A stretch of 64,000 nt of DNA, taken from positions 49,459 to 113,458 of the forward strand of contig JAILHF010000055.1 in NCBI GenBank assembly GCA_024696005.1. Reading direction: 5' to 3'. The translations under genes were made by a program, and so were the position numbers. Below, one piece after another: positions 26,877 through 28,141 of the stretch (the stretch's first letter is position 1; each line of letters begins with the position of its first letter). The stretch comes from Lachnospiraceae bacterium (lineage in GTDB: Bacteria > Bacillota > Clostridia > Lachnospirales > Lachnospiraceae). The notes below the pieces were generated by a model that was not told where the DNA came from, searched no databases, and saw nothing but the letters and a program-made list of their open reading frames with translations.

Positions 26877-26878
26877 AG

Positions 26879-26951
26879 CTGGGCCAGCTGGATTCGAACC
26901 AGCGAGATGCAGGGATCAAAACCCTGTGCCTTACCGCTTGGCGATGGCCCA
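26879..26951 (-). tRNA. tRNA-Gln(TTG)
   Basis: reverse complement TGGGCCATCGCCAAGCGGTAAGGCACAGGGTTTTGATCCCTG...GGTTCGAATCC...TGGCCCAG. Confidence 0.94.
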
Positions 26952-26986
26952 AAACAGGAGTTGCCACGTGGGTGGCCACAAACGAG

Positions 26987-27015
26987 AATATACCATATAT
27001 GCCGTCGGCGGTCAA
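26987..27015 (-). promoter_or_regulatory. minus-strand promoter TTGACC-N17-TATATT of tRNA-Gln
   Basis: hexamers at 27015-27010 and 26992-26987. Confidence 0.65.
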
Positions 27016-27041
27016 ATACATATTTTCGGTGGAGTGAGCAT

Positions 27042-27330
27042 GCGGCCTTGCGGGATGATCAAAACAGCCCGCGGAAAGAGCAGAAGACATAAGGACCGGG
27101 GCACGTCGCGGAGGAGCCCGTCAGCTCTTGAAGCTGCATGATGAGAAAAGGGACGAGTCGCCACGGATGGCGACGAGAGCGAGAGCCGGCGCATGGATGC
27201 GACGTCTCGAGCGGTCCCGGGCTGTACCCGGAATGAAAGCAGCGCCGTAGAGCTGCGTGGCTCCGGAGTGGTGCCCGGGACTTATGTCCTTCTGCTCTGC
27301 ACATCCTGCATCCTTATCCCGCAAGGCCGC
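27042..27330. repeat. ~290-bp imperfect inverted repeat / palindromic element with 15-bp perfect termini
   Basis: GCGGCCTTGCGGGAT 27042-27056 vs ATCCCGCAAGGCCGC 27316-27330 plus several nested matching arms. Confidence 0.85.
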
Positions 27331-27355
27331 CCCGCGAACGGAACAATCCCTTGTT

Positions 27356-28141
27356 CTACTCTTGCTTCAGGATATCGAGCACCCACTGGTCCTGTTTCAT
27401 GGCTTCGGTGCGCCTGCGGTAGTCGGGGAGTGTTTTTTCGATCTCACGGTAAAAGGCGGGGCTGTGATCGCGGTGCAGGGTATGGCATAGCTCATGGACC
27501 ACGACATAGTCGATCTCATAGAGGGAGAGCGTGATGAGCAGGAGGCTGTAGTTGATGCCGCATTTCGCGTTGCAGGAGCCCCAGTTGGTCCGGGCCGAGG
27601 AGATGCGGATCCGGGTGCAGGGAAAGCCGGTCAGCTTCGAAAACCGGGCTGTATGCTCCGTGAGGATGCGGCGTGCCTGCTCGCGGTACCAGTATGTAAG
27701 CATTGCCCTGTTCTGCCGCAGGATCTCCTCTTCGGGCAGAGCGATGAGGGAGATGTCCTTCGTGCGCAGACGCGGATGGGGCAGACAAAGAAACGTGCCG
27801 TCGTAGTCCGCGAGTCCGCCGCGGAAGCTTTCGGCATCGGCCAGAAACTGCTCCGGGCTGCTCAGGCGGACGTCACGGCCTGCGTGGTAGCGAAGCGTCA
27901 GCATGGCCCCGAGAAAGGGCACCCGGCTTTCGGGGGCGGCCGTGACCGAATCGGCGCGGTTTACGGAGCGCTTGCAGAGTGCCTGCCTTTCGGCGATCCA
28001 TTTCTGTTTTTCCGCGATAAAGGCATCGATCTCGGCGGCGCTGCTGTAAAGGGGAGCGCGCACGATCAGGCGCCCGTCGCTTTGGATCTCCAGGGCGATG
28101 CTTTTTCTTCGGCTTCGGATGATCTGTTCCTCTTTAATCAT
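27356..28141 (-). CDS. YgjP-type zinc metallopeptidase-like protein
   Basis: 261 aa; RSRRKSIALEI, ...DYVVVHELCHTLHRDHSPAFYREIEKTLPDYR. Confidence 0.88.
   Translation of the reverse strand: MIKEEQIIRSRRKSIALEIQSDGRLIVRAPLYSSAAEIDAFIAEKQKWIAERQALCKRSVNRADSVTAAPESRVPFLGAMLTLRYHAGRDVRLSSPEQFLADAESFRGGLADYDGTFLCLPHPRLRTKDISLIALPEEEILRQNRAMLTYWYREQARRILTEHTARFSKLTGFPCTRIRISSARTNWGSCNAKCGINYSLLLITLSLYEIDYVVVHELCHTLHRDHSPAFYREIEKTLPDYRRRTEAMKQDQWVLDILKQE

What the first reader, a model, noticed from the sequence alone, without database searches (positions are those of the whole stretch)
27042..27330. ~290-bp imperfect palindrome between tRNA-Gln and the YgjP-like gene
Seen: 15-bp perfect termini GCGGCCTTGCGGGAT / ATCCCGCAAGGCCGC. 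Inward matching arms are AGAGCAGAAGACATAAGGACCGGGGCAC (27077-27104) vs the reverse complement of 27271-27298, GGAGCC/GGCTCC (27113/27259), CAGCTCT/AGAGCTG (27122/27249), GCTGC/GCAGC (27133/27239) and GGGAC/GTCCC (27150/27214). Two apical hairpins follow: GTCGCC-acggat-GGCGAC (27157-27174) and CGCAT-gg-ATGCG. The whole stretch could fold as one long branched hairpin. It may be a MITE-like element or a structured RNA; no clear target-site duplication was visible.
Basis: seen in the sequence. Interest (0 to 1): 0.68.

Follow-up and report, generated by a model that had tools for sequence, protein, structure and literature searches.

The report
Dispersed repeat carrying CsrB-like RNA
The palindrome is one of roughly 30 scattered copies of a mobile-looking DNA repeat in a probable ruminant-gut Lachnospiraceae genome, and its core encodes a known but unexplained RNA (TwoAYGGAY) whose two hairpin loops look like binding sites for the global regulator CsrA, so it may be a regulator sponge spread in transposon-like fashion.

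Summary
(1) It is a dispersed repeat, consensus 27033-27344. The genome has 11 near-full copies (72-92% identical), several truncated or interrupted ones, and 24 core hits in all. Four congeners keep tRNA-Gln beside the YgjP-like gene with only 38-90 bp between them and no element. No ORF, no target-site duplication and no longer partner sharing the end was found. (2) Its core, 27106-27271 (+), is Rfam RF01731 TwoAYGGAY (83 bits; gathering score 43), in the same Rfam clan as CsrB. Covariation is strong: 20 of 22 pairs have compensatory changes. In the 11 copies both loops read A-N-GGA-N, with A, G, G, A invariant and N free, as in the CsrA-site consensus. In a class-wide sample all 24 genera with TwoAYGGAY also have CsrA, against 54 of 199 others.

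Best reading: a MITE-like repeat whose transcript carries a CsrA-binding, decoy-like module. Expression and binding are untested, and three near-complete csrA-less congeners keep 2-11 copies. TwoAYGGAY and its CsrA hypothesis are known. The mobile multi-copy wrapping, the genus-level co-occurrence and a nested GA-cis insert were not found in the papers searched.

The parts
27033..27344 (+). Whole type-A repeat unit (AGTGAGCATGCGG ... GCGAACGGAAC)
   Evidence: Consensus ends of 11 aligned copies; right flanks differ between copies
27042..27056 (+). Left terminal arm GCGGCCTTGCGGGAT
   Evidence: Read directly; paired in the predicted fold
27316..27330 (+). Right terminal arm ATCCCGCAAGGCCGC
   Evidence: Read directly; paired in the predicted fold
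27077..27104 (+). Left inner arm
   Evidence: Pairs with 27271-27298 in the predicted fold
27271..27298 (+). Right inner arm
   Evidence: Pairs with 27077-27104 in the predicted fold
27106..27271 (+). TwoAYGGAY RNA core (RF01731), full-length model match
   Evidence: 83.1 bits, gathering score 43
27157..27174 (+). Hairpin 1, loop ACGGAU (A-N-GGA-N)
   Evidence: A, G, G, A invariant and N = C or T in 11 copies; stem covaries over 47 cores
27190..27201 (+). Hairpin 2, loop AUGGAU (A-N-GGA-N)
   Evidence: A, G, G, A invariant and N = A, C, G or T in 11 copies; stem covaries over 47 cores
26987..27015 (-). Promoter-like site of tRNA-Gln (TTGACC-17-TATATT), just outside the repeat and apparently spared by it
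   Evidence: Consensus scan, 10 of 12 positions

Best explanation
A non-autonomous, MITE-like repeat of about 312 bp with imperfect inverted ends and no ORF has spread to intergenic sites of a probable ruminant-gut Lachnospiraceae genome. When its + strand is transcribed, probably by readthrough since no promoter of its own is evident, its core folds into a TwoAYGGAY RNA. That RNA shows two A-N-GGA-N hairpin loops about 30 nt apart, a layout suited to one CsrA dimer, so the copies together would act as a dispersed decoy or docking module for CsrA. Shown: dispersal, an empty syntenic site, family membership, covarying structure, invariant GGA loops, genus-level co-occurrence with csrA. Inferred: transcription, CsrA binding, titration, and a transposase acting in trans.
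For: Dispersed copies with shared ends; syntenic empty sites in four congeners; RF01731 match and 24 hits in the genome; same Rfam clan as CsrB; covariation beyond both controls; A-N-GGA-N loops with free N, GGA kept in most of 81 cores; csrA in the genome; CsrA in 31 of 36 TwoAYGGAY genomes and 24 of 24 genera of a class sample, against 94 of 355 and 54 of 199; the CsrA proposal of PMC4333381.
Against: No own promoter or conserved terminator on the + strand. G020, G026 and G031 (97-100% complete) have 11, 2 and 9 copies but no csrA. Within the genus copy number does not follow csrA, and eight csrA-bearing congeners have no copy. Loop 1 of type B lacks the leading A, and one clade has no GGA in loop 1. 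No target-site duplication and no transposase partner. The class-wide association is not corrected for phylogeny.
Confidence: 0.55

Rival explanations
1. A purely selfish MITE-like repeat: the conserved GGA hairpins serve its own spread (recognition of its single strand or transcript by a transposase or another factor), and CsrA is irrelevant.
For: Multi-copy, insertion-polymorphic, several different outer wrappers around the same core, persistence with intact loops in csrA-less genomes.
Against: All 24 TwoAYGGAY genera in the class sample have CsrA, and the loop constraint A-N-GGA-N with free N matches the CsrA consensus.
Confidence: 0.27
2. A family of ordinary CsrA-antagonist sRNA genes (CsrB-like) duplicated over the genome, not a mobile element.
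For: Conserved structure and loops; same clan as CsrB.
Against: No promoter or terminator of its own; copies in varied orientation between unrelated genes; long inverted arms with conserved ends; copy number 0-24 within one genus.
Confidence: 0.12
3. A cis-acting element that regulates the neighbouring gene, as Rfam's label 'Cis-reg' suggests, or that acts as a bidirectional terminator.
For: Rfam type label; intergenic position close to gene ends; strong stem on both strands.
Against: Neighbours and orientations differ between copies; congeners lack it at the window's site; no poly-U tail at its ends.
Confidence: 0.05
4. Decaying sequence with fortuitous symmetry.
For: None beyond the arms being imperfect.
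Against: Repeat copies, family match, covariation, folding z-score.
Confidence: 0.01

Closest known systems
TwoAYGGAY RNA (Rfam RF01731; Weinberg et al. 2010, PMC2864571)
   Same: Full-length model match well above the gathering score, two hairpins with AYGGAY-type loops
   Different: Here the core sits inside a longer repeat with inverted ends, in about 30 copies of at least two types; the original table lists it only as a probable RNA without cis or riboswitch role
CsrB/RsmY-type CsrA-sequestering sRNAs (Rfam clan CL00106)
   Same: Hairpin loops with GGA in pairs; same Rfam clan; csrA in the genome
   Different: Two GGA hairpins per unit rather than many, no own promoter seen, dispersed repeat rather than one or few sRNA genes, binding untested
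Bacterial MITEs
   Same: Short, ORF-free, inverted ends, dispersed in intergenic sites, absent from the syntenic site of relatives
   Different: No target-site duplication, weakly inverted outermost tips, no partner with a transposase found; carries a conserved RNA core
GA-cis RNA (RF02987)
   Same: An identical insert of about 80 bp interrupts several copies of this repeat at one and the same site
   Different: A separate RNA family, absent from the window's copy

Membership tests
TwoAYGGAY (RF01731) | Covariance-model score above the gathering score | tested here: met
   83.1 against 43 bits, model positions 1-168
TwoAYGGAY (RF01731) | Two hairpins with AYGGAY-type terminal loops and a conserved outer stem | tested here: met
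   ACGGAU and AUGGAU; 20 of 22 pairs with changes on both sides over 47 cores
CsrA-sequestering sRNA (CsrB/RsmY type) | GGA motifs in hairpin loops, in pairs | tested here: met
   A-N-GGA-N in both loops of 11 copies
CsrA-sequestering sRNA (CsrB/RsmY type) | CsrA encoded in the same genome | tested here: inconclusive
   Yes here and in 24 of 24 genera, but not in G020, G026, G031
CsrA-sequestering sRNA (CsrB/RsmY type) | Transcribed as a separate small RNA from its own promoter | tested here: inconclusive
   No promoter-like site directs + strand transcription from just before the unit; the only + strand match, at 26961-26989, is weak; expression data not available
CsrA-sequestering sRNA (CsrB/RsmY type) | Binds CsrA and relieves its targets | not testable with these tools
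   Needs binding and reporter assays
MITE | Short, without a transposase gene, in many dispersed copies | tested here: met
   About 312 bp, 26 matches in the genome
MITE | Terminal inverted repeats | tested here: met
   15-bp perfect arms about 9-14 bp inside the ends; the outermost tips are only weakly inverted
MITE | Target-site duplication | tested here: not met
   No common direct repeat in the flanks of the copies
MITE | Full-length partner element sharing the ends | tested here: not met
   All 12 left-end matches (up to 3 mismatches) are known short copies; the assembly is in 74 contigs
REP/BIME | Y1 tyrosine transposase (RAYT) in the genome | not tested

The most novel reading that the evidence does not exclude
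A transposon-like repeat has captured, or essentially consists of, a CsrA decoy RNA, so that the element's copy number sets the cell's capacity to titrate a global regulator: CsrB-like sponging that evolves by transposition in Clostridia.
Probability: 0.3. Interest if true: 0.78.

Novelty: new variant of a known kind. Interest (0 to 1): 0.55.

Why it matters
TwoAYGGAY has been an orphan RNA family since 2010, and a CsrA-binding suggestion made in 2014 was not followed up in the papers found here. The genus-level co-occurrence with CsrA and the free N inside otherwise invariant A-N-GGA loops turn that suggestion into a sharp, testable claim. The mobile, multi-copy form would be a new way for a bacterium to acquire and dose regulator sponges.

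Tried and rejected
Chance symmetry was rejected. A phage-borne element has no support: one degenerate pattern had no exact match in viral contigs. A leader for one particular gene was rejected: neighbours and orientations differ between copies. A search for a longer autonomous element by its left end returned only known short copies. GA-cis has no descriptive paper in the library. A missed csrA in G020, G026 and G031 was checked by reading their FliW neighbourhoods: only a FliW paralogue near a sigma-factor-like gene is there, without csrA. The gene-neighbour table rests on a crude ORF picker and was used only for orientation and spacing.

Full report
Observation. Folded alone, 27035-27340 gives -156.9 kcal/mol on the + strand (z = -6.6) and -154.2 on the - strand (z = -6.65), with no shuffle as stable. 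It lies between tRNA-Gln (26878-26951, -) and the 3' end of a YgjP-like gene (27356-28141, -).

It is a dispersed repeat. A search of the window's own genome (3.75 Mb, 74 contigs) with 27035-27340 gives 26 matches: the window itself, ten other full-length places at 75-89% identity, and truncated, split or contig-end pieces. Pairwise identity among 11 copies is 72-92%, so the copies are not of one age. Aligned, they share the ends AGTGAGCATGCGG ... TTGCGAACGGAAC, which places the unit at 27033-27344. Beyond the right end the sequence differs between copies, while some 20 bp to the left of the unit stay partly alike. There is no common target-site duplication. All 12 places that match the left end with up to 3 mismatches are known short copies, so no longer partner was found. 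Copies sit between genes in varied orientation.

The window's site is empty elsewhere. In G018, G029, G013 and G010 of the same genus tRNA-Gln still neighbours the YgjP-like gene, but the gap is 38-90 bp and no RF01731 match lies in it; here it is 404 bp. The species are too diverged to read the exact junction. The window's genome is therefore probably a ruminant-gut Lachnospiraceae (inference).

Its core is a known RNA family. 27106-27271 (+) matches RF01731 TwoAYGGAY over its full length with 83.1 bits, gathering score 43. The genome has 24 such hits, which fall into the window's type A and a shorter type B with other outer arms. RF01731 belongs to the same Rfam clan, CL00106, as E. coli CsrB. 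On 47 cores from this and related genomes 93.7% of cells pair and 20 of 22 pairs have changes on both sides; none of 500 shuffles reaches this, and sliding the partner by 1-3 columns drops pairing to 27-46%. The structure was derived from the same alignment, which favours it on the sliding control.

The loops look like CsrA sites. In the 11 type-A copies both loops are A-N-GGA-N: A, G, G and A are invariant, N is C or T in loop 1 and A, C, G or T in loop 2. Across 81 cores the stems differ widely but compensate, and most keep GGA in both loops. Exceptions: loop 1 of type B is a five-base CGGAU without the leading A, and a clade of four genomes (G008, G012, G016, G019) has ACGAU in loop 1. Loop sequence is strand-specific, so the selected form is the + strand RNA or single strand (inference). 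CsrA binding was proposed for this family from motif matches in PMC4333381; no follow-up was found in the library.

CsrA co-occurrence. The genome has one csrA, beside a fliW. In an even sample of the class, 36 of 391 genomes have RF01731 matches and 31 of these have CsrA, against 94 of 355 of the rest (odds ratio 17, p = 2e-12). By genus it is 24 of 24 against 54 of 199. Phylogenetic dependence is not corrected for, motility is a likely confounder, and one search used strict filters that can miss weak matches. Within the genus the link is loose: 25 of 34 congeners have 1-21 copies. G020, G026 and G031, 97-100% complete, lack csrA and carry only a FliW paralogue, yet keep 11, 2 and 9 copies; those read keep their GGA loops. 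Either csrA was lost recently there, or the loops also serve something else.

Mechanism. Most likely this is a non-autonomous mobile repeat whose transcript exposes two CsrA-type sites about 30 nt apart. Dispersal, empty site, structure and loop constraint are shown. Transcription, CsrA binding, titration and the transposase are inferred. The weak points are the absence of an evident own promoter, the csrA-less genomes, and the lack of any binding data.

Novelty. The RNA family and the idea that it binds CsrA are known. The repeat-borne, insertion-polymorphic form, the detailed loop constraint, the genus-level co-occurrence and the nested GA-cis insert were not found in the papers searched, a library that lacks most subscription journals.

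Noticed in passing
G000:C73:502760-503056 and the ends of contigs C12, C21, C17, C23 (L013-L016, L018): An identical insert of about 80 bp, matching GA-cis RNA (RF02987, 62.4 bits), interrupts several type-A copies at the same position after hairpin 2, although the copies around it differ; it contains two AGGGAGG motifs. It may be a site-specific nested element or have spread by gene conversion.
   Followed up: partly
L148, L149, L150, L151, L156 (G018, G032): In these congeners two TwoAYGGAY cores stand back to back inside a composite of about 700 bp with inverted ends resembling ATTCATGTTTATCGA; back-to-back pairs also occur in G020 and G031 (L152-L155).
   Followed up: partly
L020 (G000:C57:45292-45375 and its right end): A copy keeps both outer arms but has lost the whole RNA core, about 145 bp in all: an internal-deletion derivative.
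   Followed up: no
L053-L056, L079, L080 (G019, G012, G016, G008): The copies scoring best against Rfam have ACGAU instead of a GGA loop in hairpin 1, so only one CsrA-like loop remains.
   Followed up: no
L189, L190, L191, L193 (G020, G031, G026, G001): A FliW paralogue lies near a sigma-factor-like gene, without csrA beside it; in G020, G026 and G031 it is the only FliW.
   Followed up: partly
L196 (G007:C66): 716-898 and 351-514, both -: A Clostridiales-1 RNA (RF01699, 105 bits) lies about 200 bp from a TwoAYGGAY core on the same strand.
   Followed up: no
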